Source of the DNA: Nocardia higoensis
Lineage (GTDB): Bacteria; Actinomycetota; Actinomycetes; Mycobacteriales; Mycobacteriaceae
DNA length: 64,000 nt
Direction: 5' to 3'
NCBI RefSeq assembly: GCF_015477835.1
Contig: NZ_JADLQN010000001.1
Location: 620,001 to 684,000, forward strand
Part shown: positions 10,381 through 30,637 of the stretch, piece by piece
Layout of the letters: each line of letters opens with the position of its first letter
Numbering within the stretch: the stretch's first letter is position 1
Made by a program: the position numbers and the translations under genes
The notes under the pieces: generated by a model
Seen by the model: the letters and a program-made list of their open reading frames with translations, nothing else
What the model was told of the DNA's origin: nothing
Databases searched by the model: none

Positions 10381-10384
10381 GCAG

Positions 10385-11963: not shown

Positions 11964-11977
11964 CCGGTGATGGTGCC

Positions 11978-13084
11978 ATGAGCGGGATCTGCCTGGTGTG
12001 CGGCGGCGCGGCGTTGGAGACGGTGCTGGATCTGGGGGCGATGCCCGCCGCGGACTGGTTCCCGCCGGTGGAGCAGCCCTACGACCCGGCCGAGGCGGCG
12101 CATCCGCTGGCGATGCTGTTGTGCCGTGGCTGCGGTCTGGCGCAATTGGAGCGTGACGACACGGTCACCGAGGAGCCGCGTGGGGTGGAGCCGCGGGCGT
12201 TGCGTGAGCAGGCCGCCGACGCGGTCGCCCGGGTCGCGGCGGCGGGGCTGCTGCGGGGGCGCACGGTGCGTGAGTTCGGCAGCCCGCACGGCGGCAGCTG
12301 GCTGGATCTGCTCGCGGCGCGCGGATTCACCGCGGTCGGCGCGGACGGGGTGGCCGATGTGGTGCTGGACTGTTTCGGGTTCATGCACGAACGCGACCAG
12401 CGGGCGGCGTTCGCGCAGCGGGCGGCGGCCACCGCGGCCGGTGGGGTGCTGCTGGTGCAGTACCATCCGTTGCACACGATTGTCGGCGGGGATCAATGGA
12501 ATGCGTTGCGGCACGGGCATTTCGCCTACTACGAGCTGCGGGTTCTGCAACACGTGCTGGCGGAGGCGGGACTGTCGGTGGTGCGTGCGTGGGACTTCGA
12601 TCTCTACGGCGGCACGGTGCTGATCGCGGCCGTGCCGGGGCAGGCGCGAGCCGGGGCGTCGGTGCGGCGGGTGCTCGAGCGTGAGGCGCCGGTGCGCGAC
12701 CCGGAGGTGGTGCGCGGACTGCAGCGCGCGGCCGACCGGCAGAGTGCGGCGCTGCGCGCGGCGCTGGAAGCCGAAGCCGCGCGCGGTGCGCGGGTGTTCG
12801 CCTACGGGGCGGCCTCGCGCGCGGTGGCGTTGCTGTGCCGGGCCGGGATCGATCGTCGGTTGCTTGCCGGTGTCGCCGACGCCTCGCCTGCCAAACAGCG
12901 GCGGCGGATGCCCGGCACCGACATTCCGATCATCTCGCCGGAACAGCTGGTCGCCGCACGCCCGGACCGGGTGCTGTTGACCGTGCCGGATCTGCTCGCC
13001 GAAGTCGCCGAGCGCTACCCGCAACTCGACGGCCGCTGGTTCTGCGCCGAAGACGCGCGACCGGTGGCGGGGAGGGCGTTGTGA
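11978..13084 (+). CDS. Divergent C-methyltransferase-like protein, active site degraded
   Basis: The 368 residues align in layout with sugar C-methyltransferases: an N-terminal zinc module (CLVCGGAALETVLDLGAMPAADWF and CRGCGLAQLE), a central domain, and a C-terminal Rossmann part (VFAYGAASRAVALL). The central part is altered. The SAM-loop equivalent reads VREFGSPHGGSWL instead of ExxSNDGYLL, and the catalytic YHEH is RHGHFAYYE, keeping only the second His. It may have weak, different or no methyl transfer activity. It overlaps the following glycosyltransferase by GTGA and is divergent from the RmlC-like gene. Confidence 0.75.
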   Translation: MSGICLVCGGAALETVLDLGAMPAADWFPPVEQPYDPAEAAHPLAMLLCRGCGLAQLERDDTVTEEPRGVEPRALREQAADAVARVAAAGLLRGRTVREFGSPHGGSWLDLLAARGFTAVGADGVADVVLDCFGFMHERDQRAAFAQRAAATAAGGVLLVQYHPLHTIVGGDQWNALRHGHFAYYELRVLQHVLAEAGLSVVRAWDFDLYGGTVLIAAVPGQARAGASVRRVLEREAPVRDPEVVRGLQRAADRQSAALRAALEAEAARGARVFAYGAASRAVALLCRAGIDRRLLAGVADASPAKQRRRMPGTDIPIISPEQLVAARPDRVLLTVPDLLAEVAERYPQLDGRWFCAEDARPVAGRAL

Positions 13085-13920
13085 ACACGCTCGTCTCGGT
13101 CTGTGTCCCCGCCTACAACGCGGAACGGACCCTGCAGCAGACTTTGCGTTCCATCCTGGATCAGGATCTGGATTTCGAACTGGTGGTCCTCGACAACGCC
13201 AGCGACGACGCCACCGGCGAGATCGCGGCCTCGTTCGGCGACCCGCGGCTGCGGGTCGAACGCAACGACACCACCCTGCCGATCGGTGACAACTGGAACC
13301 GCGCGATCAGCCATTCCACCGGTGAACTGGTGAAAGTGGTGTGCGCCGACGACATTCTGCTGCCCGGTTCGCTGGCCGCGCAGGTGGAGGTGATGCGCGA
13401 CGAGGCGTTCGCCATCAGTTCCACACGGTTCCAGGTGATCGACGAACAGGGTGAGCTGGTCGAAACTGATCTCGGGTTGCCCGGCTTGGCCGGGGTGCAC
13501 AGCCCGCGGGCACTGGCGCGCACCATCGTGCGCCGTGGTCCCGCCGATTTCGGGCCCACCGCCGCGGCGATGTTCCGGCGTGAGCATTTCGACCGGGTCG
13601 GCGGGTTGCGGGGTGATCTGGTGTTCCCGATGGATGTCGACCTGTTCGCCCGCGTCGGCCAGTTCGGCCTGTTCTTCGGGTTGCCGCAGGTCGCCGCCGC
13701 CTGGCGGGACTCGACGTTCAACTTGTGCAGCCGCACCTCCACGGTCAGCAAGCTGACCGAACTGCTGCGTTTCCACCATCGTCTGGCCCGTGACTGCCCG
13801 CGGCTGCTCTCACCGGCGGATGTCGCCGTCGGTGACGTGCGGATCGCGGGCATGGCGCTGGAACGGCTGCGGGTGCGTGCCGGTGCGGTACTGCGCGCAG
13901 GGCGTGGGTCGAGCCGATGA
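13081..13920 (+). CDS. Family 2 glycosyltransferase (GT-A)
   Basis: The protein has 279 residues and begins VNTLVSVCVPAYNAERTLQQTL, the GT2 N-terminal strand. VVLDNASDDATGEIA and CADDILLPGSL (the DxD-like metal and nucleotide-sugar site, near residue 87) follow. There is no membrane segment, so it probably works at the inner face of the membrane, adding one sugar to the undecaprenyl-linked repeat unit. Donor and linkage are unknown. It is translationally coupled on both sides (GTGA and ATGA). Confidence 0.88.
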   Translation: MNTLVSVCVPAYNAERTLQQTLRSILDQDLDFELVVLDNASDDATGEIAASFGDPRLRVERNDTTLPIGDNWNRAISHSTGELVKVVCADDILLPGSLAAQVEVMRDEAFAISSTRFQVIDEQGELVETDLGLPGLAGVHSPRALARTIVRRGPADFGPTAAAMFRREHFDRVGGLRGDLVFPMDVDLFARVGQFGLFFGLPQVAAAWRDSTFNLCSRTSTVSKLTELLRFHHRLARDCPRLLSPADVAVGDVRIAGMALERLRVRAGAVLRAGRGSSR

Positions 13921-14996
13921 CCGGGGCCGCCACGACCCGTGTGCACCTGTGCGGGTCGGAGTGGTTCGGCGCCGCCGAGGGCGGGTTGAACCGCTACTTC
14001 ACCGACCTGCACGCCGCGCTGTACCGGCGCGCCGATCTGTCGGTCACCGCCGCCGCTTTCGGTGACCCGCCCGAGGGGGGATCGTCGTGGGGCCCGGTCG
14101 GTGGCTCGACCCGGCAGCGGACCTGGGCCGCGCGCCGGGATGTCCTCGCGCGCATCGGGGAACCACTGATCCTGGATCGGCACTTCGCCCTCTACGGTCC
14201 GCCGCGCGGCAGGCATCGGCTGGTCGTGCACTTCCACGGCCCGTGGGCGGCGGAAAGCGCTGCGGCGGGACAGAATTCGACCGCTGTGCGGATGAAGTAC
14301 CTGATCGAACGGGTGCGGGCGATGCGTGCGGACCGGTTCGTGGTGCTCTCCGAGCACATGCGGGCTGTGCTGGCCGGGGACTACGGGGTGGACCCGCGGA
14401 TGGTGGAGGTGATCGCGCCCGGGGTGGATCTGGACCGGTTCCGTCCCGCGGCCCCCGCGCGCGAGGACCGGCCGATCGTGTTGTGTGTGCGGCGGCTGGA
14501 GCACCGCATGGGTATCGACGTGCTGCTGCGCGCGTGGCCTGCGGTGCGGGCCGCGCATCCGCGGGCCGCGCTCGTCGTGGTCGGCACCGGCACCGCCGAA
14601 TCCGCCCTGCGCGCCCAGGCCGATCCGCTGGGGGAGGGGGTGCGGTTCACCGGCCGCGTCGGTGACGACGAACTCGCCGAGCTGTATTCGCGTGCCGCGC
14701 TGACCGTGGTGCCCTCGGTCGCGTTGGAGGGGTTCGGGCTGATCGCGTTGGAGTCGCTGGCCGTCGGTCGCGCCCCGGTGGTCACCGATTGTGGTGGGCT
14801 GCCCGACTCGGTGCGTGGTCTCGATCCGAGCCTGATCGTGGCGGGCGGGGACGTCGACGCGTTGGCCGAGCGCCTGGTGCAGGCCCTGGACGGGAAACTG
14901 CCCGACGCCGCTGCCTGCCGCGCGCACGCGGAAACGTTCTCCTGGGCCGTGGCCGCCGAACGTCACGCCGCGTTGTATCGGGAGCTGGCCCGGTGA
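13917..14996 (+). CDS. Family 4 glycosyltransferase (GT-B)
   Basis: This 359-residue GT-B protein has an N-terminal acceptor half (HLCGSEWFGAAEGGLNRYFTDLH) and a C-terminal donor half. The donor half shows PIVLCVRRLEHRMGIDVLLRAW, LYSRAALTVVPSVALEGFGLIALESLA and the E-x7-E retaining motif within it. Such enzymes are retaining transferases that use NDP-sugars. It overlaps its neighbours by 4 nt at both ends, indicating a role in the same repeat-unit pathway. Confidence 0.9.
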   Translation: MTGAATTRVHLCGSEWFGAAEGGLNRYFTDLHAALYRRADLSVTAAAFGDPPEGGSSWGPVGGSTRQRTWAARRDVLARIGEPLILDRHFALYGPPRGRHRLVVHFHGPWAAESAAAGQNSTAVRMKYLIERVRAMRADRFVVLSEHMRAVLAGDYGVDPRMVEVIAPGVDLDRFRPAAPAREDRPIVLCVRRLEHRMGIDVLLRAWPAVRAAHPRAALVVVGTGTAESALRAQADPLGEGVRFTGRVGDDELAELYSRAALTVVPSVALEGFGLIALESLAVGRAPVVTDCGGLPDSVRGLDPSLIVAGGDVDALAERLVQALDGKLPDAAACRAHAETFSWAVAAERHAALYRELAR

Positions 14997-16351
14997 TTCG
15001 AGCTGTGTTCCTCACCCACACCGCCGCCCCGTCCGGCGCCGAACTCGCGACGCTGCGGTTGCTCAGCGCTCTCGAGGGGCGGGCGCGGCACATCGGCGCG
15101 CGCAGGGTCGCGGCGTCTGGTGGTGCGTTCGACAGCGGTGTCGTCGAGGACCGGGTGCCCGGCGGTGACGCCGTAGTCCACGGCGAAGGTGTCGACAGCG
15201 CAGGCCCCGGGGGCGCGGCGCGCGGCGGCGGCGCATCCGAGGACAACGCACCCGGTGGAGAACTCGACGGCGGGGCAGCACACGACGCCGCGGCGGTGCG
15301 CGTGTCGATGCTGCTGACCGAGCACGGTCCGCTGGTGGAGTTGCTGCGTGCCCGCGGCATCCCGGTCACGGTGTGCGGCAACGACTTCGACAGTCGCAGC
15401 CTCACCATCGCCGGGGCGGGGCCGCTGCGGCTGATCGGCGGGGCGTTCGAACTGATCCGGTTGGGCAGGCGGCTAGGGGAGTATGTGCGTGCCGAGGACG
15501 CCGACGTGCTGGTCGCCGGAAGCAGCAAAGCGTTGCTGATGGGTGCGGTGGCGGCCCGGCGCGCGCGGGTGCCGCTGGTGTGGCAGGTGCACGACCGGAT
15601 CGCCGGCGAGTACTTCGGGACCGTGCTCGCGGTGCTGTTGCGGCTGCTGGGGTGGGTCCTCGCGCGTGGTGTCGTCGCCAACAGTCACGCCACCCTCGCC
15701 ACGCTCTACACCCGAGGGCGCGTCGCCGCGGTCGCCTATCCCGGTGTGGAGGACACCGCCACGGGTGAACGGGCACCGCAACGCGCGCCCGGCGATGTCC
15801 GGATCGTGCTGGTGGGGCGGCTCACCCCGTGGAAGGGCCACGCCGTCCTGCTGCGCGCCCTGCCGCTGCTGCGGCGCCCGCCCGCCGCGGTGACGCTGGT
15901 GGGCGGGACGTTCTTCGGGGAGCAGGACCACCGCCGCGAACTCGAGCGCGCCGCCGCGGGACTGGCGGTGCCGGTCGAGTTCACCGGTCACGTCGAGGAT
16001 CCCGGGGCCTATCTGCGGGCGGGCGATATCGCGGTGCACTGCTCTGTGACGGCCGAGCCGTTCGGGCAGGTCGTGGTGGAGGCCATGCGCGCCGGTTGCG
16101 CGGTCGTCGCCGCCGACGCGGGCGGGCCCACCGAGATCGTGCGCCACGACGTCGACGGGCTGCTCGTGACACCCGGTGATCCGGCCGCGCTCGCCGCCGC
16201 GCTGGACCGGCTGATCGCCGACCCCGCGCTGCGCACGCGTCTGGCCGAGGCGGGCATGCGGCGGAGCGGAGATTTCTCGATCGAGGAGACCGCCCGCGTG
16301 GTCACCGCGCTGCTGCGCACCGTCACCGGGAAGCAGGGGGGTGCGCGGTGA
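14993..16351 (+). CDS. Family 4 glycosyltransferase with a low-complexity insertion
   Basis: The 452-residue GT-B enzyme starts IRAVFLTHTAAPSGAELATLRLLSAL. Its donor domain has RIVLVGRLTPWKGHAVLLRAL, FTGHVEDPGAYLRAGDIAVHCS and AEPFGQVVVEAMRAGCAVVA (the E-x7-E region). The unusual part is roughly residues 35-100, a Gly/Ala/Asp-rich stretch (GGAFDSGVVEDRVPGGD and onward) inserted between the first helix and the next core strand VSMLLTEHGPLVELL. GT4 enzymes normally join these in a short loop. The insertion keeps the frame and GC content, so it may be a disordered loop or a duplicated low-complexity expansion. Confidence 0.87.
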   Translation: MIRAVFLTHTAAPSGAELATLRLLSALEGRARHIGARRVAASGGAFDSGVVEDRVPGGDAVVHGEGVDSAGPGGAARGGGASEDNAPGGELDGGAAHDAAAVRVSMLLTEHGPLVELLRARGIPVTVCGNDFDSRSLTIAGAGPLRLIGGAFELIRLGRRLGEYVRAEDADVLVAGSSKALLMGAVAARRARVPLVWQVHDRIAGEYFGTVLAVLLRLLGWVLARGVVANSHATLATLYTRGRVAAVAYPGVEDTATGERAPQRAPGDVRIVLVGRLTPWKGHAVLLRALPLLRRPPAAVTLVGGTFFGEQDHRRELERAAAGLAVPVEFTGHVEDPGAYLRAGDIAVHCSVTAEPFGQVVVEAMRAGCAVVAADAGGPTEIVRHDVDGLLVTPGDPAALAAALDRLIADPALRTRLAEAGMRRSGDFSIEETARVVTALLRTVTGKQGGAR

Positions 16352-17868
16352 GCTTGGCCGATCAGAACACCATCCCGATCCGCATCGTCGCCCGGCACTA
16401 CCCGGTGTCGCTGGACGGTCTGCGCACCCCCGACTACGACCTGCCCACCGAGGTCATCCCCGCCTTCGCCGACTGGCCGACCGAGAAACTGCCGGTCCTG
16501 ACGACCCGCGCTCTGCAGGCAGCCGCCGAGGAAGCCGCGGGCGCGCCGCAGTCGCGGGCACGGGAACTGGCCGGGCTGGTGCGTGACATCGCCTACGTCA
16601 GTTTCGGCAAATACGGCCAATACCTGGTGACGGTGGCGACGCTGCCGCTGATCGCGCGGGTGCTCGGCGCCGCCGGGCTCGGGCTGCTCGCCATCGGCAT
16701 GTCCGCCTACTTCCTCGGCTCACTGCTCATCGACCTGGGCATCACCTCGTACATGGCCGCGCGCGTGCAGGAATCGGGCATGCAGGAATCCGGGGTGGAC
16801 AAAGGGGTGGTGAACCGCATCCGCGGCACCTACCTGGCGATCCGCGCGGGCATCCTCGCCGTGGTCGCGGTGGCGTTGGCGATCGCGGTGCTCGCGGGTG
16901 CGCCCGAGCAGTTCACCATGATCGTGCTCGGTCTGTTCGTCGGTGGCTTCTGGTCGATGTCGGAGGACTGGGTGCTCATCGGGCAGGGCCGCTTCGGCGC
17001 CTCCACCCTGTATCAGTCCGTCGCCCGTGTCGGCTATCTCGGGCTGCTGCTGGCATTGCTGCCGAGATTCCCCAGCGCGGTCATGGCCCTGCTGTGCCTG
17101 CTGGGGTCGGCGGTGGTCAGCGTCGGTTTGACCTGGTGGGATACCTGGCGCACCTTCGGTGCGCCGACCGCGCCGCGCGGGGTGTGGAAACTGGTGCGTT
17201 CGTCGGTGCCGGTGGTCAGCGGACGCCTGCTCACCACCAGCTACGGTCAGGGCGCGGCGACGGTGTACGGCACCGTGCTCGACGCGGTGTCTCTGGGCCT
17301 GTTCTCCGCGTCGGACCGGTTGGTGCGCGCGGTGCAGTCCATGCTCGACCCCATCGGTTTCGCGTTGTTGCCGCGGCTGGCCAAGCGTGGCAGCGAGGAA
17401 CGGTTCTGGCCTGATGCGGTGCGGTCGCTGGCGGTGTGTGTGGCGGTGGCGTGTGTGGCCTCGGCGGCGTTGTGGGTCGGCGCGCCGCTGCTGATCCCGG
17501 TGGTGTTCGGCGCGGAATTCGCCGACGCGGTCGCGGTGCTGCGCCTGGAGGCGTTGATCCTGCCCGCGACCACGGTGACCTCGTTCGTCACCACCGCCGT
17601 GCTGCCGGTGCGTCAGGACACCACCGGTGTGCTGATCGGCGCGATCGTGGGCACCTGTGTGGCCGGTGTGGCGCTGTTCATGGCGGTGCGCACCCATTCG
17701 ATGTGGACACTGGCGGGCGGCATCGTCGCCGCCGAATGCGCGGTGGCCCTCTGGTATCTCGCGCGCATGCGCGGACTGTTCGTGCGTGAACGCGCCGCGA
17801 GTGCCCTCGGGAGCAGTGGCCTCGGGAGCAGTGGCCTCGCGGACGCGGAAAGAAGAAGGACGCGATGA
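16348..17868 (+). CDS. Wzx-like polysaccharide flippase (MOP superfamily)
   Basis: The protein has 506 residues with about 12 hydrophobic segments from residue 75 onward (FGKYGQYLVTVATLPLIARVLGAAGLGLLA first), the pattern of polysaccharide_synt transporters. It should flip the lipid-linked repeat unit across the membrane. A soluble ~65-residue N-terminal extension (IPIRIVARHYPVSLDGLRTPDYD onward) precedes the first membrane segment and is not typical. The C-terminus has a short tandem repeat (GSSGLGSSGL). It is coupled by overlaps to the glycosyltransferases on each side. Confidence 0.88.
   Translation: MSLADQNTIPIRIVARHYPVSLDGLRTPDYDLPTEVIPAFADWPTEKLPVLTTRALQAAAEEAAGAPQSRARELAGLVRDIAYVSFGKYGQYLVTVATLPLIARVLGAAGLGLLAIGMSAYFLGSLLIDLGITSYMAARVQESGMQESGVDKGVVNRIRGTYLAIRAGILAVVAVALAIAVLAGAPEQFTMIVLGLFVGGFWSMSEDWVLIGQGRFGASTLYQSVARVGYLGLLLALLPRFPSAVMALLCLLGSAVVSVGLTWWDTWRTFGAPTAPRGVWKLVRSSVPVVSGRLLTTSYGQGAATVYGTVLDAVSLGLFSASDRLVRAVQSMLDPIGFALLPRLAKRGSEERFWPDAVRSLAVCVAVACVASAALWVGAPLLIPVVFGAEFADAVAVLRLEALILPATTVTSFVTTAVLPVRQDTTGVLIGAIVGTCVAGVALFMAVRTHSMWTLAGGIVAAECAVALWYLARMRGLFVRERAASALGSSGLGSSGLADAERRRTR
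17806..17835 (+). repeat. 15-bp perfect tandem repeat (two copies)
   Basis: CTCGGGAGCAGTGGC occurs at 17806-17820 and 17821-17835, inside the 3' end of the flippase gene. It encodes LGSSG twice, so copy number changes would keep the frame. Confidence 0.85.
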
Positions 17869-18869
17869 AGATCCTGTTCCTCGGCGACGACTGGCTCGGC
17901 AGCAATGCCCGCTCGCTCGCCGAAGGTTTCCGAGCCCTCGGCCACGAAGTGATCGTGATCGACTCCACCCCGGCGACCCTGCCGCCGCGGCTGTCGCCGT
18001 CGTGGCTGTATGCCAAAACCCATGAGCAGCGCGCCCCGTGGACCGTCGAGCGCATCCACACCCGTCTGGAGCGCGCCGCCGCGGAACTGCGCCCGGACAT
18101 GGTGTTCGGGTTCAAGTCCGTGCACCTGGACCAGCGTCGCCTGCTCGACATCCCGGCCTCGCTGCACGTGCACTACAGTCCCGACGACGTCGCCAACCCG
18201 GCCAACACGACCGCGGACTATCTGGCACACGAGTCGGAATGGGATCTGGTGGTCACCACCAAACGTCACAATGTGCCCGAACTGCTGGCACGCGGAGCCG
18301 AGGAGGCGTTGTTCGTGCGCAGCGCCTACGACCCGGCCTGGCATCACCCGGCCGCCCGGCGCAGCACCCGCCAGTTCCTCGTCGGCTTCATCGGCGCCTG
18401 CCGGCCCGACCGCCGTGACGGCATGGTGTCCCTCGCCCGCACCTACGGTGCGCAGCTGCTGGTGTGCGGGCCGGGCTGGCGGCGGGTGCGGCGGCTGCGC
18501 ACCACCCGCGCCGCCGTCACCGCCGGGGTGTACGGGGAGGACTTCTCGATGACCGTGGCCTCGGTGACCGCGAACCTGGTGCTGCTCAACTCCGCCAACC
18601 GCGACACCCACACCTGCCGCACGTTCGAAGTGCCCGCCGCGGGCGGACTGTTCGTCGGCGAACGCACCGACGAACACGCCGAGCTGCTCGAAGACGGCGC
18701 CGAAGCGTTCCTGTTCTCCAGCCGCGACGAACTCGACGAGATCCTCGAACGCTGCGCGCAGTACCCCGACCAGGTGACCAAGATCGCCGAAGCCGGGCAC
18801 CGGCGCATCGTCGAGGGCGAGCACACCTACACCGACCGGGCGAGGGAGATCCTGCGTGCCCTTCAGTAG
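17865..18869 (+). CDS. CgeB-like glycosyltransferase
   Basis: The 334-residue protein begins MKILFLGDDWLGSNARSLAEGFRALGHEV. Its C-terminal half has FLVGFIGACRPDRRDGMVSLAR, VTANLVLLNSANRDTHTCRTFEVPAAGGLFV and FSSRDELDEILERC, the arrangement of the CgeB/Glyco_trans_1_2 group. These are GT-B enzymes that modify surface or secondary-metabolite glycans. Donor and acceptor are unknown. Start and stop overlap both neighbours. Confidence 0.8.
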   Translation: MKILFLGDDWLGSNARSLAEGFRALGHEVIVIDSTPATLPPRLSPSWLYAKTHEQRAPWTVERIHTRLERAAAELRPDMVFGFKSVHLDQRRLLDIPASLHVHYSPDDVANPANTTADYLAHESEWDLVVTTKRHNVPELLARGAEEALFVRSAYDPAWHHPAARRSTRQFLVGFIGACRPDRRDGMVSLARTYGAQLLVCGPGWRRVRRLRTTRAAVTAGVYGEDFSMTVASVTANLVLLNSANRDTHTCRTFEVPAAGGLFVGERTDEHAELLEDGAEAFLFSSRDELDEILERCAQYPDQVTKIAEAGHRRIVEGEHTYTDRAREILRALQ

Positions 18870-20259
18870 TGTGCCGGGCCTCGGTGATGTACTCGGCAAC
18901 GGCCCGTTGCTGGTCGTGGTCGCCGCGCTCGTGACGATGGTCGTCGCCGGACTGCTGGTCTCCGGTGTGCTGCGGGTGCTGCTGATCGCCCAGGCGGTGT
19001 ACTGGTCGATGTCGTATGTGGCGCGCCCGGTGCTGCTGCTGGTGGTGCGGCCCGAACCGCACTTCGGCGACAACATCGCCGATCCGCGGCTGTCGGAGAT
19101 CGGCTACGACATCGGCATCGAAGGCGCGCTCGAGCCGGTCGCGTTCGGACTGTCGGTGTACGCCGCGCTCGTGCTGGCCTACGCGATATGGGCGCGGCCG
19201 CGCGAACGCACCCGCCGGGCGGCCCTGGCAGGCGACCCCGACTTCATCGCCACCCTGTGGGCGCTGTACGCGCTGGGCACCCTCGCACGGCTGGCCAGTG
19301 TCGCGGGCGGCACCGCCGGGCAGGCCGGTGAAGTGGAAAGCGCCTCACCGCTGTTGAGCCTGCTCACCATGCCCGCCACCCTCGGCGCGGTGGGACTGCT
19401 GGTGTTCGCGCGTCCGGCCACCCACCACGCCAACCTGGCTGTCCTCGGATTCCTGGTGCTGGGTGAACTGTGGTGGACCACCGCTATCTCCTCCAAGACC
19501 CCGATCCTGGGTGCGGCATTGGCGATCGCGGTGCGTTTCGCCCTCACCGGCTGGACGCGCGCGAAGGTCGGTGGTATCGCGGCGGTGTCAGTGCTGGGCA
19601 TCGTCGGATTCGACTGGTTGCAGTCGCTCAAGACAACCCCGTATCTGAAAGCCGAAGCCGCCAACATCGATTCCGCCTACCCGGAGACGGTGCGTCCGTT
19701 CCTGAGCCTGCTGCGCCGCTTCGACCTGCTCGAAGCCGCCACCGACGCCTACTATCTGGGGCCGAGCTCGTGGCTGAGCGCCGGTGAGGTGATCGGACAC
19801 CTGGGCAGAGCGATGGTGCCCAGCCAACTGCTCACCACGGAGAAACTGCACGCGGGCACCGCGTGGGCGGCGCAGGTGCGCGGCGCGTCGGTGGACATGA
19901 GTCAGGTGTCGGTGTCGCTGGCCGAAGGCAATGTCGCCGAGGGCTACGTCCTGGGCGGGCACACCGGCGTCGTCATCGGCATGGTGTTCACCGCCGTCGT
20001 CCTGATCGGCTGGGGGCGGTCGCTGTATGCCGGGCACCTGGTGCCGGTGTTGTTCGGGGTGGCGCTCATCGAGGTGCCGGTGGTGTTCGAGCGCGGGATG
20101 CTCGGCAGCGCCGAAACCCTCGGCAAGTATCTGCAAGTCGTCGTGCTGGCCTGGCTGACCCGTCTCGCGGTGGGTTACTGGCGCCGGCATCGGGAACGGA
20201 TCACCGTGCCGCCGACGCGGCCGGAACCGGCGATCGTTGGGAGTGAAGAAAACCGATGA
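18856..20259 (+). CDS. Multi-pass membrane protein, probable polysaccharide polymerase (Wzy-like)
   Basis: This 467-residue protein has about 10 membrane segments, from PLLVVVAALVTMVVAGLLVSG near residue 16 to VPVLFGVALIEVPVVF near 395. A long extracytoplasmic-looking loop lies in the second half (about 270-370). Wzy polymerases have this topology and little sequence conservation, so the assignment rests on topology plus position between a glycosyltransferase and the chain-length protein, and on the lack of any other polymerase in the locus. GTG 18856 overlaps the preceding gene by 14 nt. Confidence 0.65.
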   Translation: MPFSSVPGLGDVLGNGPLLVVVAALVTMVVAGLLVSGVLRVLLIAQAVYWSMSYVARPVLLLVVRPEPHFGDNIADPRLSEIGYDIGIEGALEPVAFGLSVYAALVLAYAIWARPRERTRRAALAGDPDFIATLWALYALGTLARLASVAGGTAGQAGEVESASPLLSLLTMPATLGAVGLLVFARPATHHANLAVLGFLVLGELWWTTAISSKTPILGAALAIAVRFALTGWTRAKVGGIAAVSVLGIVGFDWLQSLKTTPYLKAEAANIDSAYPETVRPFLSLLRRFDLLEAATDAYYLGPSSWLSAGEVIGHLGRAMVPSQLLTTEKLHAGTAWAAQVRGASVDMSQVSVSLAEGNVAEGYVLGGHTGVVIGMVFTAVVLIGWGRSLYAGHLVPVLFGVALIEVPVVFERGMLGSAETLGKYLQVVVLAWLTRLAVGYWRRHRERITVPPTRPEPAIVGSEENR

Positions 20260-21800
20260 TGGAACTGCCCGACTATCTGCGTATCGCGCGCCGCCGCTGG
20301 CCGATACTGCTCGCCGGACCGGCGCTGGGTATCGGCCTGGCCGCCTACCAGGTGCAGGCGACCCCCCAGACCTACACCGCCTCCAGCAGCATGTATGTCT
20401 CCATGGCCACCGGCACCTCGGTCGCCGACTCCTACCAGGGTGGGCTGGCCGCCCAGCAGCGCGTGCGGTCCTATCTCGAGTTGGTCACCAGCGACACCGT
20501 CGTCGACCGGGTCATCGGCCAGCTGTCCCTCGACACCAGTCGCGGGGAACTGGCCGCGCAGATCGGCGCGGACTCCCCGCCGGCGACGACCCTGCTGCAG
20601 GTCTATGTCTCCGACGAGAATCCTGAACGCGCCCGCGTCATCGCCGACGAAGTCGTCTCCCAGATGCGCGCCCTGATCGACGATCTGGAAACCATCGAAC
20701 GCAGCGCCGCCCCGGCGGCCCGCGTCGCCGTCGTCGACCGCGCCGAACTGCCCACCGAACCTGACGGTGGTGGCGGCACCAGCCTGCTGGCCGCCGGCGC
20801 GGTCGGCGGGCTGATGCTCGGCGCGATCGCGGCCTACCTGCTCGAACGGTTCTCCCGCAGGCCACGCGACCTCGACGACCTCGAACCGTTCGGTGTGCCG
20901 CTGCTGGGAACCGTCGACCTCGGCGGCGCCGCCGAAACCGCGGGCCTGCGGGCCGTGCGTGCCCGCCTGCCCGAAACCGCAACCCCCCTGCTGGTCACCG
21001 GAGCGGGCGCGGGCAGCGCACCGGGGTTCGCCGCCGCGCTGGCCGCGGCGCTGGCCGCCACCGGCCGCCGGGTGTTGCTCATCGACGCCGACACCACCGG
21101 CGCGGGCACCACCACACTGCTGCCCGTCACCGCCGGGGATTGGCCGATCCGGGAATCGGCGACCCTGCACCGAACCACCGTCGCCGCCGGACACGACTAC
21201 CTCGAGAACGCCACCCTGCGCACCACCAAGATCGACCTGCGCACCATCCCCGCCGCCGTGCCCGCCGACGAACCCACCAGCGGCCCCCGCATCCCCGGCG
21301 GACTGGACCTGGTGCTGCGCGGAGAAGCCCGCCTCGACGACACCACGACCAGTTGGGCCGCGCGCGGCATCACCGTGCTCACCCTCGGCGCCGCCGACGC
21401 CCGCACCCCCGACTTGATCGCCTCGGCGCGCTTCACCGCCCTGCTCGCCGACGCCGCGCAACGCTACGACCACGTGATCGTCGAAACCGCCGCCCCCGGT
21501 GCCGCCGCCGAAGCCGCCGCGGTGGCCGCGCGCAGCGCCGGTGTCCTCGCGGTCACCGTGCTCGGCGCCGCCACCACCCCACGGCTCGAACAGGACCTGG
21601 CCGTGCTGAAGGCAGCGGGCGCCCAGATCACCGGCCTGGTCGCCGTGCCGTCCCGGCGCACCCTGTGGCAGCGGCTGTCCCGCCGCGACACCGCCACCCC
21701 CGTGCCACCCGTCGCCACACCGCAGGCCGTCCCCGCCCCGGCCGTCGCGACAGGCGCACCGGCCATGGTCGAGGCCGCAGGTCCCGGGCAGGTCCGATGA
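20256..21800 (+). CDS. Wzz-like chain-length protein fused to a degenerate tyrosine-kinase-like domain
   Basis: The 514 residues comprise a Wzz-type unit and a fused BY-kinase-like domain. The Wzz unit has a cytoplasmic start (ELPDYLRIARRRWPILLAG), a first membrane helix at about 17-36, an extracellular helical part, and a second helix LLAAGAVGGLMLGAIAAYLLERF at about 172-194. In the kinase-like domain Walker A is replaced by TGAGAGSAPGFAAALA, lacking the P-loop Lys-Ser/Thr. The following RVLLIDAD (Walker A') is kept, and there is no C-terminal tyrosine cluster. It probably sets polymer length without ATP-dependent autophosphorylation. It is coupled to the genes on both sides by ATGA. Confidence 0.82.
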   Translation: MMELPDYLRIARRRWPILLAGPALGIGLAAYQVQATPQTYTASSSMYVSMATGTSVADSYQGGLAAQQRVRSYLELVTSDTVVDRVIGQLSLDTSRGELAAQIGADSPPATTLLQVYVSDENPERARVIADEVVSQMRALIDDLETIERSAAPAARVAVVDRAELPTEPDGGGGTSLLAAGAVGGLMLGAIAAYLLERFSRRPRDLDDLEPFGVPLLGTVDLGGAAETAGLRAVRARLPETATPLLVTGAGAGSAPGFAAALAAALAATGRRVLLIDADTTGAGTTTLLPVTAGDWPIRESATLHRTTVAAGHDYLENATLRTTKIDLRTIPAAVPADEPTSGPRIPGGLDLVLRGEARLDDTTTSWAARGITVLTLGAADARTPDLIASARFTALLADAAQRYDHVIVETAAPGAAAEAAAVAARSAGVLAVTVLGAATTPRLEQDLAVLKAAGAQITGLVAVPSRRTLWQRLSRRDTATPVPPVATPQAVPAPAVATGAPAMVEAAGPGQVR

Positions 21801-23128
21801 CCGGACTCCGACGCCGCCACCTGCTCGCCGCCGGACTCGGCATCGCCGCGGTGCCGATCGCCTCCTGCAACGCCCAGGAGCCCACCGGCCCCATGCCACC
21901 GGGAGGAACCGCCGTGCGCAACATCCGTGACTTCGGCGCCGTCGGCGACGGCAAGGCCGATGACACCGCCGCCCTGGCCGAGGCCGCCCGCACCGACGGG
22001 CCGCCGCCGGTGATCTACCTGCCCGCCGGCGACTACAAAGTGACCGCCTTCCCCGAACTGCCCGATTACGCCGTCGTCTACGGAGACGGCGCCGACGTGA
22101 CCACCGTGTTCTGCGAAACCGACACCACCCTGGTCACCCTGCGCAACAAGCAGCGGGTCCGGTTCGCGCGCATGGGTTTCTACCTCACCGGCCCCGAAGC
22201 GACCGCCATCCAGCTCAGCGAATGCTTCCGCTGCAGCTTCGACACCGTGCTCGTGCGCGGCAACCACCTCGGCGACAACATGCCCCGCTACCTCCGCCAA
22301 CGCGGCATCGTGCTGGAAGCCAACACCGGCGGCACCTCCTTCGTCGACTGCGACATCAACAACTTCGGGATCGGGCTGAGCACCTCCTGCATCCAGAATT
22401 ACGTCACCTCTTCGAAGTTCACCAGCAACCGCATCGGTGTCCTCGGCGTCGGCACCGACGACCACGCCGCCGGCCTGTCGATCACCAACTCCGAGTTCGT
22501 CTCCGACACCGACCCGGGCACCACCGACAGGCACCTGCTCATCGACGGCGCCGCCGCCAACTGGTGGCTGACCAACGTGTGGTTCGAAGGCGCCGAAGTC
22601 GCCGTGCAGGTGGGGGCGGCCGGACGCGGCGGGCCCGCCCAATTCGGCATGATCAACTGCAAAGTCGCAGGCCGCACCGCCTGCGTCGAGCTGAACCACT
22701 GCCGCCAGCCGTATCTGGCCAATATCGCCTTCGACCCCGACCCCGGCCACAGCCCCGCCGAACTGCGCATCGATCCCGCGGGCTGCCCCGAAGGCACCGC
22801 CGTCAACCTCATCTCCAGCGCGGGGGAGGATCTCGATTCGCGAGTGTTCCCCGACCACTGGCAGGTCATCGGACGCGGTCGCGTGCACCGGCCCACCTTT
22901 ACCGGCACCGTCACCGCCCAAGGCGCGGGCGACGCCGAGATCCTGCGCGCCCGCTCCCAGGACGGCACCGCCGTCGCGTCCGTGCTCGCCTCCGGTGCCT
23001 ACGTCTCCGACCGCGCCGACGCCGGAGTGGTGCTGCGCGACGGCGAAGGCGGCTACTGGCGGCTCGTCGTAGCCCCCAACGGTGCGCTGACCACCGCGCC
23101 CCTGGGCAAGGACCGGCCGGCCCGCTGA
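21797..23128 (+). CDS. Tat-exported lipoprotein with pectate-lyase-type beta-helix
   Basis: The 443-residue protein starts MTGLRRRHLLAAGLGIAAVPIASCNAQ, combining a twin-arginine motif with a lipobox (IASC, Cys about residue 24). It should therefore be exported folded and lipid-anchored. IRDFGAVGDGKADDTAALAEAA, the signature of the pectate-lyase-superfamily right-handed beta-helix, follows. Turns such as FVDCDINNFGIGLSTSC and LSITNSEFVSD then build the helix. Its place in a polysaccharide operon suggests it trims, binds or epimerises the product outside the cell. The catalytic residues cannot be assigned. Confidence 0.85.
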   Translation: MTGLRRRHLLAAGLGIAAVPIASCNAQEPTGPMPPGGTAVRNIRDFGAVGDGKADDTAALAEAARTDGPPPVIYLPAGDYKVTAFPELPDYAVVYGDGADVTTVFCETDTTLVTLRNKQRVRFARMGFYLTGPEATAIQLSECFRCSFDTVLVRGNHLGDNMPRYLRQRGIVLEANTGGTSFVDCDINNFGIGLSTSCIQNYVTSSKFTSNRIGVLGVGTDDHAAGLSITNSEFVSDTDPGTTDRHLLIDGAAANWWLTNVWFEGAEVAVQVGAAGRGGPAQFGMINCKVAGRTACVELNHCRQPYLANIAFDPDPGHSPAELRIDPAGCPEGTAVNLISSAGEDLDSRVFPDHWQVIGRGRVHRPTFTGTVTAQGAGDAEILRARSQDGTAVASVLASGAYVSDRADAGVVLRDGEGGYWRLVVAPNGALTTAPLGKDRPAR

Positions 23129-23132
23129 CGCG

Positions 23133-23726
23133 ATGAGCACCACGCCGGGCACCACCCCACCCCGCCGCGGCAGGCTCAGCCTGCCCGGCCCGCTGGGCGT
23201 ACTGCGCCTTCCGCTGGCCGTCGTGGCCGCGGTCCTCGCCGTCGCCGTCGCCGGGCTACCGGTGTTCGTACACCCCCAGATCGATCCGCTGCGCCCCGCC
23301 GACGCCATCGTGGTGCTCGGCGGAACCCCGTACGAACGCTTCGACATCGGCGTCGACCTCGCACGGGCGGGACTGGCTCCGGAACTGCTGATCGCCGCCT
23401 CCACCGGTCTGGACGACCCGCTGATGGACCGCTACTGCCGTGGCGGATACCCGTTCCGGGTGCAGTGTTTCGAACCGCGCCCGTGGACCACCCAGGGCGA
23501 GGCCCAGGAGATCCGCCGCCGCGCCGAATCAGGCGGGTGGCGTCACATCATCGTCGTCACCTTCACCCCGCACGTCTCCCGCGCCCGCTACATCATCGGC
23601 AAATGCTTCGACGGCGAACTCACCATGGTCGCCAGCCCCGCCCCGACCGGCCTGGCCTACCAGGCGTGGATGTATCTGCGCCAGAGCGCCGGCTATCTGC
23701 GGGCCTTCACCGAGACCGGCTGCTGA
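23133..23726 (+). CDS. YdcF/ElyC (DUF218) family membrane-anchored protein
   Basis: This 197-residue protein has one N-terminal membrane helix (LAVVAAVLAVAVAGLPVFV, about residues 28-46) followed by the DUF218 core: ADAIVVLGGTPYERFDIGVDLARAG, PWTTQGEAQEIRRRAESGGWRHIIVVT and SRARYIIGKCF. Relatives such as ElyC and SanA influence envelope polysaccharide and lipid-carrier metabolism, but no reaction is established. It lies 4 bp after the beta-helix gene. Confidence 0.82.
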   Translation: MSTTPGTTPPRRGRLSLPGPLGVLRLPLAVVAAVLAVAVAGLPVFVHPQIDPLRPADAIVVLGGTPYERFDIGVDLARAGLAPELLIAASTGLDDPLMDRYCRGGYPFRVQCFEPRPWTTQGEAQEIRRRAESGGWRHIIVVTFTPHVSRARYIIGKCFDGELTMVASPAPTGLAYQAWMYLRQSAGYLRAFTETGC

Positions 23727-25094: not shown

Positions 25095-25363
25095 GCCTGC
25101 GTTCCACCGCCACCGCCACCGCCACCGCCACCGGAACCGGAACCGGAACCGGAACCGGATACGCCGCTGCCGCCGCACCGCCCGGGCTGCCGCACCGCAG
25201 CCGACGACAGTCGCCTCCGCTACACCGGCGGTCGCACGCCGACGCGCCGGCCACCGCAGTGTGCGCTGCGCGTCCTCGACACCTGTTGCCCGAGGCATCG
25301 CCCGCACCGCACCTCACCCCCGGCACACGACGAGCCCGCAGCGCACAGGAGAACCCGCAATGA
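25091..25363 (+). CDS. Small repeat-rich reading frame coupled to both neighbours
   Basis: A 90-residue frame starts with ATG in an ATGA overlap with the aminotransferase and ends with TGA in an ATGA overlap with the next glycosyltransferase. Exact coupling at both ends is the main reason to call it coding. Its N-terminus is made by hexanucleotide repeats (alternating Thr-Ala then Thr-Gly), and the rest is Arg/Pro/His-rich (PHRSRRQSPPLHRRSHADA). I recognise no family, signal peptide or membrane segment. It could be a small protein, a translated linker that keeps ribosomes moving to the next gene, or a gene remnant. Confidence 0.4.
25106..25159 (+). repeat. Hexanucleotide repeats (4 x ACCGCC, 5 x ACCGGA)
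   Basis: Units ACCGCC at 25106-25129 run straight into units ACCGGA at 25130-25159. Six-base units keep the reading frame, so copy-number slippage would change length, not on/off state. Confidence 0.9.
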
Positions 25364-27508: not shown

Positions 27509-27514
27509 TAGTCT
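27509..27514 (+). promoter_or_regulatory. Leaderless -10 box (TAGTCT) of the Lgt/radical-SAM operon
   Basis: TAGTCT ends 6 nt (all C) before ATG 27521. There is no ribosome site, so the four-gene operon probably starts as a leaderless message. Confidence 0.6.
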
Positions 27515-27520
27515 CCCCCC

Positions 27521-28276
27521 ATGGTGCCGCAGCTGATCTTCGGGCTCCCCACCCACGGCTTCTTCGTGGCGCTCGGGGTGGCGGTCGCTGCCGTCGTCTT
27601 CGTCGCCGAATGCCGGCGCCGCGGTGCGCTGGGGGAGGAATCGCTGGTCGCGGTGACCGGCGCGCTGGTCGGTGGGGCGGTCGGGATGCGCCTGTCGAGC
27701 CTGGCCGAAACTCTCGACCCCTACGAGAGCTGGCTGTTCGGGGCGCGCAGCGTGCTCGGCGGACTGCTCGGCGCCTACCTCGGTGTGCTTGTGGCCAAAC
27801 GGCTGATCGGCTACCGCGAACGCACCGGCGACCTGTTCGCCCCCGCCGTCGCTCTCGGCATGACCGTCGGCCGCATCGGCTGCCACCTCACCGAGGCGCC
27901 GGGACGCCCGACCGGACTGCCCTGGGGCGTGCACGCACCGGGCTCGGTGCCCGAATGCCCCGGTTGCGCGAGCGGATCGGCGATGCACCCCAGCTTCCTC
28001 TACGAAATCGCCTTCCACCTGGCGGCGTTCTGCTGGCTGCGGTGGGCGCGCGAGAAGATCACCGCCCCCGGTGAACTGTTCACCCTCTACGTCGGCGCCT
28101 ACGCGGTCTTCCGGTTCCTCGTCGAGTTCACCCGCGCCAACGACACCGTGTGGCTGGATCTGACCCGCCCGCAATGGTTCTTGATCCCCGGGCTGATGCT
28201 GGTCGCGGTGCGCTGGACCATCGGCTACCGGCGCGGCACCTACGACCGGATACTCGGACGAAAGGTCCCGGCATGA
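27521..28276 (+). CDS. Lgt-like integral membrane protein with altered key residues
   Basis: The 251-residue, roughly seven-helix protein resembles prolipoprotein diacylglyceryl transferase. GRIGCHLTEAPGRPTGLPWGV (about residues 118-138) matches the Lgt signature, and YAVFRFLVEFTRAND keeps the C-terminal Arg motif. Two positions important in E. coli Lgt appear changed: the His of the HGG loop (here VLGGLLGAY) and the Asn of GRxGN (here Cys). It is also shorter than usual Lgt. It is therefore probably a paralogue acting on phosphatidylglycerol-like lipid but not standard lipoprotein modification. It is first in an ATGA-coupled operon with a Tes-like radical-SAM protein. Confidence 0.8.
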   Translation: MVPQLIFGLPTHGFFVALGVAVAAVVFVAECRRRGALGEESLVAVTGALVGGAVGMRLSSLAETLDPYESWLFGARSVLGGLLGAYLGVLVAKRLIGYRERTGDLFAPAVALGMTVGRIGCHLTEAPGRPTGLPWGVHAPGSVPECPGCASGSAMHPSFLYEIAFHLAAFCWLRWAREKITAPGELFTLYVGAYAVFRFLVEFTRANDTVWLDLTRPQWFLIPGLMLVAVRWTIGYRRGTYDRILGRKVPA

Positions 28277-28800
28277 CCACCCCACCCGACCCGCCCTTCC
28301 AGGGACCGCCACCACCGCAGGGACCGCCGCCCGAAGAACCGCGACACCGAGGTCAGCACTATCGACCCTACGAGGGACCGATGCCGTACCCGGGCACGCC
28401 GGACCCCACACCGAAGCAAGGCGGCATCGTCGCCGCTTTCGCGGTCGCCGGAGCCGCCCTGTTCATCGTTGTCAACGCGGTGTTCGGCTTCGTCGTCTTC
28501 GTCGCCGTCGCCAACACCGCCAACACCGCCAACAGCGGCAATTCCTATCCGGTGATCCTCGGCGTCGCCGCCGCGGTCAGCGCACTGGCCGCGTTCGGTG
28601 GTGGTGCGGCGCTCATCATGCTGCGCAAACCCGTCACCAAAGGACTCGGCCTGGGGTTGATGATCGGCTGGGCGCTGGTCAGCATCTCCACCGCGGGGTT
28701 CTGCACCGGCCTCAACCCCCACCTCTACAGCGCACCCCCACCGCACGACGCGGCCACCGGCCACTCCACGGCGGTCACCGAGAACGGAGCACACCCATGA
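28273..28800 (+). CDS. Proline-rich small membrane protein of the radical-SAM operon
   Basis: The 175-residue protein has a Pro-rich cytoplasmic N-terminus (residues 1-48, with PPFQGPPPPQGPPPEEP). Three hydrophobic segments follow (GIVAAFAVAGAALFIVVNAVFGF, VILGVAAAVSALAAFGGGAALI and LGLMIGWALVSISTAGF). A three-fold repeat of GCCAACACC encodes the NTANTAN linker. No known family is recognised. It overlaps genes on both sides by ATGA, so a role with the Lgt-like and radical-SAM proteins at the membrane is inferred. Confidence 0.65.
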   Translation: MTTPPDPPFQGPPPPQGPPPEEPRHRGQHYRPYEGPMPYPGTPDPTPKQGGIVAAFAVAGAALFIVVNAVFGFVVFVAVANTANTANSGNSYPVILGVAAAVSALAAFGGGAALIMLRKPVTKGLGLGLMIGWALVSISTAGFCTGLNPHLYSAPPPHDAATGHSTAVTENGAHP

Positions 28801-30362
28801 GCACCGGGATGCCGCTGCGCGGGGACCGAATCCAGCGCTACGTCACCGCCTTCTGCCCCACCTGCCACCACGAGAACCCCGACCGGCCGCTGCCCGAGGT
28901 CGCACGCCTGTCCGGCTGGCTCGCCGAACGCGACGGCCGGGTATACCTCGAACGTGGCTGCCCCCGCCACGGCATGATCCGCACCCTCTACGACGAGAAC
29001 CCCGAAATCCTCACCTACCTCGAACGCTGGACCGCCCCCACCAAAGCCCACCTGCCCGACACACCGGGCAACTTCGACCCGGTGCCCTCGGCCTATCTGC
29101 GCGGGCTGCCGGAAATGCAGACCCAGCACACCTGCATCCTGCTCGAGGACATCGTCGACACCTGCAACCTGCGCTGCCCCACCTGCTTCGCCGACTCCGC
29201 CCCCGACCTCGGCGGTGTCGTCGACATCGGGGATGTTCTCGCCAATGTCGACCAGCGCCTGGCCCGCGAACACGGCACGCTCGACGTCCTCATGCTCTCC
29301 GGCGGCGAACCCACCCTGCACCCGCGGCTGCCCGAACTGCTCGCCGAACTCACCGCCCGCCCCATCACCCGAATCCTGATCAACACCAACGGCATCCGCA
29401 TCGCCCGCGACGACACCCTGCTCGCACTGCTCACCGAACACCGCGAACGCGTCGAGATCTACCTGCAGTTCGACGGCATCAGCGCCACGGCGTCGCGCCA
29501 CCACCGCGGCGGCGACCTGCGCCCGCTCAAACAACAAGCACTGCGACGACTCTCCGCGCACGCCGTCTTCACCACCCTGGTGATGACCGCCGCCCTCGGC
29601 GTCAACGACGACGAGATCGGCGCCGTCGTCCAGACCGCGCTGGACACCCCGTTCGTCGGCGGCGTGTCCATCCAACCCCAGTTCGGCTCCGGCCGATCCG
29701 GGGCGATCGACCCCACCGACCGGCTCACCCACACCGGCGTGCTGGCCCGCCTCGGCCCCCAAACCGGCGGCCGGGTAACCTGGCGCGACCTCACCGCCCT
29801 GCCCTGCTCCCACCCGCACTGCTGCTCGGTCGGCTACCTGCTGCGCGACGACGCCGGAACCTGGCGCTCCCTGGTCGGGCTCATCGGCCACGACACGCTC
29901 GCGCAGCGACTCGGCCTGGTCGCCAACCGCATCGCCGACAGCGACATCCCCGCCGAACTGCGCCTGGCCGTGCGCGAATCACTGCACGGACTGCTCTCCG
30001 AGCAATCCTCCCTGTCCCACCCCGACATCGGCACGCTGTGGCAGACCATCTGCCAGACCTGCGATTTGGGCATGTCCACCCTGCTCACCCTGGCCTCCTC
30101 GGCGCTGCCCGGCCGCCGAGCCCGGCTGCGGCGACTGCTCGGCGAACGCGTCGTGCGCATCACCGTCAAACCGTTCATGGACATCTCCACCATGATCGAA
30201 GAACGCCTCACCCAATGCTGCGTCCACGTCGGCACCCGCGCGGACGCCGCCGACCAATGCGCCCCCTTCTGCGCCGTGCAGGCCTGGCCCGCCCTGTCCC
30301 GTCAACGCCTGTCCGCCGCCGCGCCCGCCGGACCCGCACTGCTACCGGTACAGCCGCGATGA
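28797..30362 (+). CDS. Cysteine-rich radical-SAM enzyme resembling tetraether lipid synthase (Tes)
   Basis: The 521-residue protein has three parts. Residues 20-58 hold FCPTC and GCPRHG, an N-terminal Cys/His module like the rubredoxin-like or zinc module of archaeal Tes. The radical-SAM core follows, with C123-x3-C127-x2-C130 (CNLRCPTCF), SGGEPTLHPRLPEL, INTNGIRIA and YLQFDGI. The C-terminal third is rich in Cys (LPCSHPHCCS, ICQTC, QCCVHVG, DQCAPFCA), suggesting auxiliary iron-sulfur clusters. In archaea Tes joins lipid tails by radical C-C bond formation. The order CxxC-CPxHG, CNLRCPxC, SGGEPT, YLQFDG fits that family better than MoaA or maturases. The lipid role here is inferred from family and from the Lgt-like neighbour. 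Confidence 0.8.
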   Translation: MSTGMPLRGDRIQRYVTAFCPTCHHENPDRPLPEVARLSGWLAERDGRVYLERGCPRHGMIRTLYDENPEILTYLERWTAPTKAHLPDTPGNFDPVPSAYLRGLPEMQTQHTCILLEDIVDTCNLRCPTCFADSAPDLGGVVDIGDVLANVDQRLAREHGTLDVLMLSGGEPTLHPRLPELLAELTARPITRILINTNGIRIARDDTLLALLTEHRERVEIYLQFDGISATASRHHRGGDLRPLKQQALRRLSAHAVFTTLVMTAALGVNDDEIGAVVQTALDTPFVGGVSIQPQFGSGRSGAIDPTDRLTHTGVLARLGPQTGGRVTWRDLTALPCSHPHCCSVGYLLRDDAGTWRSLVGLIGHDTLAQRLGLVANRIADSDIPAELRLAVRESLHGLLSEQSSLSHPDIGTLWQTICQTCDLGMSTLLTLASSALPGRRARLRRLLGERVVRITVKPFMDISTMIEERLTQCCVHVGTRADAADQCAPFCAVQAWPALSRQRLSAAAPAGPALLPVQPR

Positions 30363-30637
30363 GCGACACCGGCGTCTACTACGAGGAAGCGAACGCCCGC
30401 CGAGCACCGCACGACCCGCTGAACCTGTGCGTCTACGCCACCGTCGCCCTGCTCACCTGGCTGATCGGTCCGCTCGCGCTGACCGGTTTCGCCGCACTCG
30501 GATTCCTCGCCTACCTGCGGGCCAGGCGAGAGGGGTTGCTGCGCAGCAAGTGCTGGTTGCGCGACACCCGACTGGTGCTGGCCTATCTCGCGGCCCTGGT
30601 CGTCGTCGGAGTGCTGGCCTCGACACCGTTGCTGTAG
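30359..30637 (+). CDS. Small two-helix membrane protein closing the radical-SAM operon
   Basis: The 92-residue protein starts with ATG 30359 overlapping the radical-SAM stop by ATGA. It has two hydrophobic segments (LCVYATVALLTWLIGPLALTGFAALGFLAYL and LVLAYLAALVVVGVLAST) separated by a basic loop (RARREGLLRSKCWLRD). No family is recognised. It may help place the radical-SAM enzyme at the membrane, which is an inference from context only. Confidence 0.65.
   Translation: MSDTGVYYEEANARRAPHDPLNLCVYATVALLTWLIGPLALTGFAALGFLAYLRARREGLLRSKCWLRDTRLVLAYLAALVVVGVLASTPLL

What the first reader, a model, noticed from the sequence alone, without database searches (positions are those of the whole stretch)
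27509..30637. Leaderless operon linking an Lgt paralogue to a Tes-like radical-SAM enzyme
Four genes are joined by ATGA overlaps: a non-canonical Lgt-like protein, a Pro-rich three-helix protein, a 521-residue radical-SAM protein and a two-helix protein. The radical-SAM protein has a CxxC/CPxHG N-terminal module, CNLRCPxC, SGGEPT, YLQFDG and a Cys-rich C-terminus, the layout of archaeal tetraether lipid synthase. Tes joins lipid tails by C-C bonds; Lgt handles phosphatidylglycerol. Together they suggest radical modification or cross-linking of lipid or lipoprotein acyl chains in an actinomycete. The function is inferred; motifs and operon structure are seen.
Basis: partly seen in the sequence, partly recalled or inferred. 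Interest (0 to 1): 0.85.

Follow-up and report, generated by a model that had tools for sequence, protein, structure and literature searches.

The report
Bacterial lipid-tail radical enzyme pair
An actinomycete carries a gene pair, kept together in every sampled genome of its class that has this type of either gene and found side by side in a distant bacterium too, for a radical enzyme predicted to be shaped like the archaeal lipid-tail joiner and an altered lipid-transfer enzyme, which likely modify membrane-lipid tails together.

The parts
27509..27514 (+). -10-like box TAGTCT, 6 nt before the ATG: leaderless promoter signal
   Evidence: conserved in 52 of 58 Lgt-first loci against 0 of 58 internal starts
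27521..28276 (+). Lgt-like membrane protein (251 aa), PF01790; keeps R143/G154/E202/Y235/R239/E243 equivalents, changes Y26 to H, H103 to L, N146 to C
28273..28800 (+). Pro-rich protein with three predicted membrane helices (175 aa); conserved GLM.GWAL......G.CTG.NP..Y at helix 3
   Evidence: no Pfam or NCBIfam family over cut-off
28797..30362 (+). Tes-like radical-SAM protein (521 aa), PF23545 + PF04055
30359..30637 (+). 92-aa protein with two predicted membrane helices, conserved DPL.LC and S.C.L.DTRLVL.Y; no Pfam, NCBIfam or PHROG match

Best explanation
The operon encodes a two-enzyme module, conserved together across Actinomycetota and side by side in one Bacteroidota replicon, in which a Tes-like radical-SAM protein likely abstracts hydrogen from a fatty-acyl tail and would use its C-terminal iron-sulfur cluster to couple or otherwise functionalise that tail, while an Lgt-like membrane protein with a likely changed acceptor site is predicted to move the diacylglyceryl unit of phosphatidylglycerol onto a thiol or other acceptor that is not the ordinary lipobox cysteine. 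Shown here: gene order, strict co-occurrence, full-length homology and residue conservation; predicted: the folds. Inferred: that the two enzymes act on the same lipid, that the substrate is an acyl tail, that C-C coupling is the chemistry (I give coupling itself about 0.25), that the residue changes in the Lgt-like protein alter its acceptor, and that the two small membrane proteins (one with a Pro-rich tail) dock the soluble enzyme at the membrane.
Against: [quoted passage not shown] The Bacteroidota partners in turn lack the C470 equivalent (11 of 11 rows have Glu). The best NCBIfam match is TrsS, not Tes. Relatives at 32-35% identity lack the Lgt-like gene, and several pair with a methyltransferase instead, so the fold does not fix the reaction. 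No lipid of this kind is known to me from these hosts (recall). Many hosts are aerobes (recall), whereas Mss and Ger were described as acting mostly under anaerobic conditions (PMC11868695, passages). The clade uniting the Actinomycetota and Bacteroidota radical-SAM partners is not significant (85/70), and in the Lgt tree the Actinomycetota Lgt-like rows are not one side of a branch.
Confidence: 0.45

Rival explanations
1. The radical-SAM enzyme modifies a protein or peptide, for instance a conserved Cys or Tyr of the small membrane proteins or of a lipoprotein, and the Lgt-like enzyme lipidates that same protein.
For: The Pro-rich protein has a conserved CTG.NP..Y at helix 3 and the 92-aa protein has two conserved Cys. 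Lgt has been proposed to act on a peptide first modified by another enzyme class (PMC12636315, passages). Peptide maturases SuiB and SkfB are among the next structural matches.
Confidence: 0.17
2. It is a TrsS-like or methylase-like radical-SAM enzyme whose reaction is not on lipid tails; the Lgt-like partner supplies a different membrane step.
For: Best NCBIfam model is TrsS, 190.9 bits. MJ0619 itself was once assigned a pterin methylation (recall). Relatives in a haloarchaeal and a Mycolicibacterium plasmid sit beside methyltransferases, as do three actinobacterial loci.
Against: Far below the TrsS cut-off of 490; none of the four operon genes is a methyltransferase; the MJ0619 authors could not corroborate the earlier finding and found lipids in the pocket (PMC9433317, passages).
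Confidence: 0.18
3. It is simply a bacterial membrane-spanning-lipid synthase (Mss/Tes) and the Lgt-like neighbour is incidental.
For: Full-length homology with Tes. Mss is described as the bacterial enzyme that couples acyl tails and has been modelled as sharing the Tes architecture (PMC13274423, passages).
Against: Strict co-occurrence with the Lgt-like gene.
Confidence: 0.1
4. The Lgt-like protein is an ordinary weak lipoprotein transferase paralogue and the pairing reflects co-transfer as a mobile cassette.
For: A paper notes a second Lgt homologue of M. smegmatis, MSMEG_5408, with Y26H and N146C and presumed low Lgt activity (PMC13251419, passages). Copies lie on M. avium and M. branderi plasmids, and the distribution is patchy: 4 of 36 genomes of the own genus.
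Against: All 13 genomes checked have a second, higher-scoring Lgt as well. Mere co-transfer does not easily explain 24 of 24 against 0 of 370, changed gene order, or the same Lgt changes in two phyla.
Confidence: 0.1

Closest known systems
Archaeal tetraether lipid synthase Tes / GDGT-MAS (MJ0619, PDB 7tol, 7tom)
   Same: Whole-length homology and predicted fold; rubredoxin-type Cys3His site, CX3CX2C, YLQFDG, and the C-terminal FMD...CCxH...PFC block
   Different: No N-terminal auxiliary-cluster ligands; Lys for Met439 and Val for Tyr459 (M439A and Y459F/L variants of MJ0619 stay active); 144.3 bits against a cut-off of 450; linked to an Lgt-like gene
TrsS radical-SAM (seleno)protein family (NF045646) and methyltransferase-paired relatives
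   Same: Best NCBIfam score; same zinc-ribbon plus radical-SAM architecture
   Different: 190.9 against 490 bits; partner is Lgt-like, not a methyltransferase; lacks the N-terminal cluster ligands that 15 of 16 distant rows keep. Those rows were not shown to be TrsS: the two of them that I scored (L194, L195) also fall under its cut-off
Bacterial membrane-spanning lipid synthase Mss
   Same: Described as coupling acyl tails in bacteria and modelled as sharing the Tes architecture (PMC13274423, passages)
Lgt, prolipoprotein diacylglyceryl transferase (PDB 5azb)
   Same: Predicted fold and the arginines R143 and R239 of the phosphatidylglycerol pocket
   Different: Y26 to H and N146 to C in 50 of 50 rows and H103 to L, I or M; below the TIGR00544 cut-off; a second, higher-scoring Lgt is present in all 13 genomes checked

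Membership tests
Tes / GDGT-MAS | Full-length sequence and fold homology | tested here: met
Tes / GDGT-MAS | NCBIfam NF045702 cut-off (450 bits) | tested here: not met
   144.3 bits
Tes / GDGT-MAS | Rubredoxin-type ligands C9, C12, C33, H36 | tested here: met
   43 of 43 rows of the Lgt-linked Actinomycetota group
Tes / GDGT-MAS | N-terminal [Fe4S4] ligands C73, C77, C80 and His | tested here: not met
   0 of 43 rows; 11 of 11 Bacteroidota rows and 15 of 16 distant rows keep them
Tes / GDGT-MAS | Met439 and Tyr459, completely conserved in 1,000 archaeal homologues (PMC9433317) | tested here: not met
   Lys in 43 of 43; Val in 42 and Ala in 1 of 43; not needed for activity in MJ0619
Tes / GDGT-MAS | C-terminal Cys/His block (C455, C456, H458, C470) | tested here: met
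   43 of 43 at each position; which of these ligate the cluster was not stated in the passages read
Tes / GDGT-MAS | C-C coupling of two lipid tails | not testable with these tools
   needs an assay or lipidomics
TrsS | NCBIfam NF045646 cut-off (490 bits) | tested here: not met
   190.9 bits
TrsS | Adjacent methyltransferase gene (recalled as the usual partner; seen beside relatives) | tested here: not met
   None of the four operon genes is one; present beside L194 and L195
Mss | Sequence similarity to characterised Mss | not tested
   No Mss sequence or model was on hand
Lgt | PF01790 gathering score and Lgt fold | tested here: met
Lgt | TIGR00544 cut-off (118.9 bits) | tested here: not met
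   65.3 bits
Lgt | Y26, H103, N146 required in E. coli Lgt | tested here: not met
   H at Y26 and C at N146 in 50 of 50; L, I or M at H103, a site where 6 of 6 canonical actinobacterial rows also differ (W or Y) (residues from PMC13251419, passages)
Lgt | R143, G154, R239 required in E. coli Lgt | tested here: met
   50 of 50 at each
Lgt | Diacylglyceryl transfer to lipobox cysteine | not testable with these tools
   needs an assay

The most novel reading that the evidence does not exclude
A bacterial pathway, spread over Actinomycetota and Bacteroidota, in which a repurposed Lgt and a divergent tetraether-synthase relative together build a diacylglyceryl anchor whose acyl tails are joined tail to tail by C-C bonds, giving membrane-spanning lipids or membrane-spanning lipoprotein anchors in ordinary mesophilic bacteria.
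Probability: 0.2. Interest if true: 0.92.

Novelty: new variant of a known kind. Interest (0 to 1): 0.72.

Why it matters
Bacterial homologues of tetraether synthase are known by the hundreds (456 retrieved in PMC8941075), but their reactions are open, as the Tes papers say (PMC9433317, PMC8941075, passages). A strictly conserved partner that resembles a phosphatidylglycerol-handling enzyme is the first strong clue, within what I searched, to what one bacterial branch acts on. It makes the question directly testable in culturable bacteria: delete the pair and look at acyl tails and lipoprotein anchors. It might also give a role to Lgt paralogues with Tyr26 and Asn146 changed, one of which has been presumed a weak lipoprotein transferase (PMC13251419, passages).

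Tried and rejected
Considered and set aside. (1) Plain Tes: rejected as a filing by the cut-off, the lost N-terminal cluster ligands and the Met439/Tyr459 replacements; the latter two do not argue against coupling, as MJ0619 variants at both sites stay active. (2) MoaA or SPASM families: much weaker. (3) Phage origin: no match among 50,697 phage records. (4) One single origin of the Lgt pairing: the two Lgt-linked clades group in the best tree at 85/70, not significant, and grouping the Bacteroidota clade with the distant rows instead is not rejected (p-AU 0.211). A first, quick tree gave 47 for the same join. In the Lgt tree the Actinomycetota Lgt-like rows were not one side of a branch (2 changes). 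(5) Promoter and terminator scans were uninformative. (6) A first HMM of the Pro-rich family was built from untrimmed frames that ran into the Lgt gene; its hits were discarded and the family was recounted with a trimmed model: 79 of 80 named loci, but 10 of 16 further class loci and 0 of 5 genomes outside the class, so the Pro-rich gene is an accessory of the main clade. The one 92-aa-family hit in L177 (46 bits) looks spurious by eye. (7) In one search the canonical-Lgt finder recovered 6 of 14 loci; 8 were dropped, so canonical counts rest on 6 rows. (8) Seven or eight of the 16 distant rows start after the first Cys pair because of my start choice, so their C9/C12 gaps are not evidence of loss. 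(9) The 80 named loci are the best 80 of 434 and biased to close relatives; the 394-genome sample is the less biased count. That search scores only the best few candidates of a first look per genome, so 'absent' means no match at E<=1e-30. (10) Methyltransferase neighbours of distant relatives were readable in 5 of 13 loci listed (L147, L148, L182, L194, L195); the others were not resolved. (11) One search was meant to scan four fetched loci but printed hits for the first alone; the other checks were made.

Full report
Observation. The first gene starts 6 nt after TAGTCT. A TAnnnT box 6-8 nt before the start is found at 52 of 58 Lgt-like starts in named loci where that gene precedes the Pro-rich gene, at 0 of 58 radical-SAM starts of the same loci, and at 0 of 19 Lgt-like starts where the Pro-rich gene precedes it. 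So the box follows the gene order, which is stronger evidence for a leaderless promoter than one sequence could give.

How it differs from Tes. In 43 aligned Lgt-linked Actinomycetota rows the rubredoxin-type ligands are kept 43 of 43 and the C-terminal CCxH...PFC residues 43 of 43. [quoted passage not shown] In MJ0619 the M439A and Y459F/L variants remain active and the authors place the radical intermediate on the C-terminal cluster (PMC9433317, passages), so coupling chemistry is not excluded by those two changes; the lost N-terminal cluster is a real architectural difference.

The partnership. Of 394 class genomes, 24 carry this radical-SAM type (67-100% identity, the window's genome included) and the same 24 carry the Lgt-like gene, always on the same contig and strand with a gap of at most 737 nt; 13 further genomes have only a distant radical-SAM (32-35%) and no Lgt-like match at E<=1e-30. 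Fisher p is 6e-39, without correction for shared ancestry. In the sample of 60 relatives, 5 have the type and all 5 the adjacent Lgt-like gene. In the 396-genome phylum sample, 5 genomes outside the class have the type and 5 of 5 have the Lgt-like gene next to it; a sixth, G634, matches only in fragments and was not examined. Among 80 named loci (Nocardia, Mycolicibacterium, Mycobacterium, Nonomuraea, Microbispora and others) the Lgt-like gene is beside it in 79, the Pro-rich gene in 79 and the 92-aa gene in 49; the two single misses lie at contig ends. In 25 loci compared, other neighbouring frames recur only within groups, in at most 9 of 24 other loci apart from antisense shadows of the pair.

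A second phylum. A plasmid of Persicobacter psychrovividus (Bacteroidota) holds an Lgt-like gene overlapping a Tes-like radical-SAM gene that is 28-32% identical to ours. Searches with both proteins listed many Bacteroidota relatives (120 shown of 2,043 and of 8,000), and 16 longest-contig lengths, Persicobacter's own among them, are common to the two lists, including contigs of 2,401 and 2,624 nt that leave room for little else; this is indirect, as context is not given. In 11 of 11 such radical-SAM rows the N-terminal cluster ligands and Met439 are kept, Tyr459 is Ile and the PFC cysteine is Glu. Both Lgt-linked groups are clades; their union is favoured but not significant (85/70).

Contrast. 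Relatives without the Lgt-like gene behave differently: in a haloarchaeal and an M. vanbaalenii plasmid a methyltransferase gene follows, and the same was readable in three actinobacterial loci. So within one enzyme family two partner types exist, methyltransferase or Lgt-like, which suggests that the partner reports on the substrate (inference).

Mechanism. Most likely the radical-SAM enzyme works at the inner face of the membrane on acyl tails, by analogy with GDGT-MAS, and the Lgt-like enzyme, like Lgt, at the outer face transfers a diacylglyceryl unit from phosphatidylglycerol. Whether it acts before or after tail modification, and on which acceptor, is open. The conserved Cys of the Pro-rich protein follows predicted helix 3, a possible acceptor, but no such gene was detected beside the Persicobacter pair. 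I give the shared-lipid reading 0.45 and tail-to-tail coupling about 0.25.

Literature. No paper in the held library has both 'tetraether lipid synthase' and 'prolipoprotein diacylglyceryl transferase', and searches listed none on such a pairing, judged by titles and abstract starts. Bacterial Tes homologues of unknown function are reported in PMC9433317 and PMC8941075 (passages), and Mss as the bacterial tail-coupling enzyme in PMC13274423 and PMC11868695 (passages); the original Mss paper was not seen. Subscription papers are mostly outside this library.

Verdict. A real, strictly conserved and, within these searches, undescribed two-enzyme module; new variant of known kinds; function inferred.

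Noticed in passing
L191 (M. avium pS2b) and L192 (M. branderi pJCM12687): The cassette is plasmid-borne in two mycobacteria, and within the own genus 4 of 36 genomes have it: it looks like an accessory, mobile trait.
   Followed up: partly
window 30359-30637 and relatives: The 92-aa two-helix protein belongs to an unnamed, well conserved family (S.C.L.DTRLVL.Y) found beside the pair also outside the class, but not detected beside 28 of 34 mycobacterial copies among the 80 named loci.
   Followed up: partly
L195 (M. vanbaalenii plasmid): A TrsS-like radical-SAM gene with methyltransferase lies near CcdA, a protein disulfide oxidoreductase and an Rv1681-family radical-SAM gene.
   Followed up: no
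L090, L091 (two genomes of the own genus): A distant Tes-like radical-SAM gene (33-35%) without Lgt-like partner occurs in two genomes in which the operon type described here was not found.
   Followed up: partly
   Followed up: no
window 7557-23137: A run of sugar methyltransferase, nucleotidyl transferase, epimerase, glycosyltransferase and flippase-like frames suggests a surface polysaccharide cluster (by eye).
   Followed up: no
window about 25095-25200: Simple repeat coding alternating Arg/His or Arg/Asn runs in one frame.
   Followed up: no
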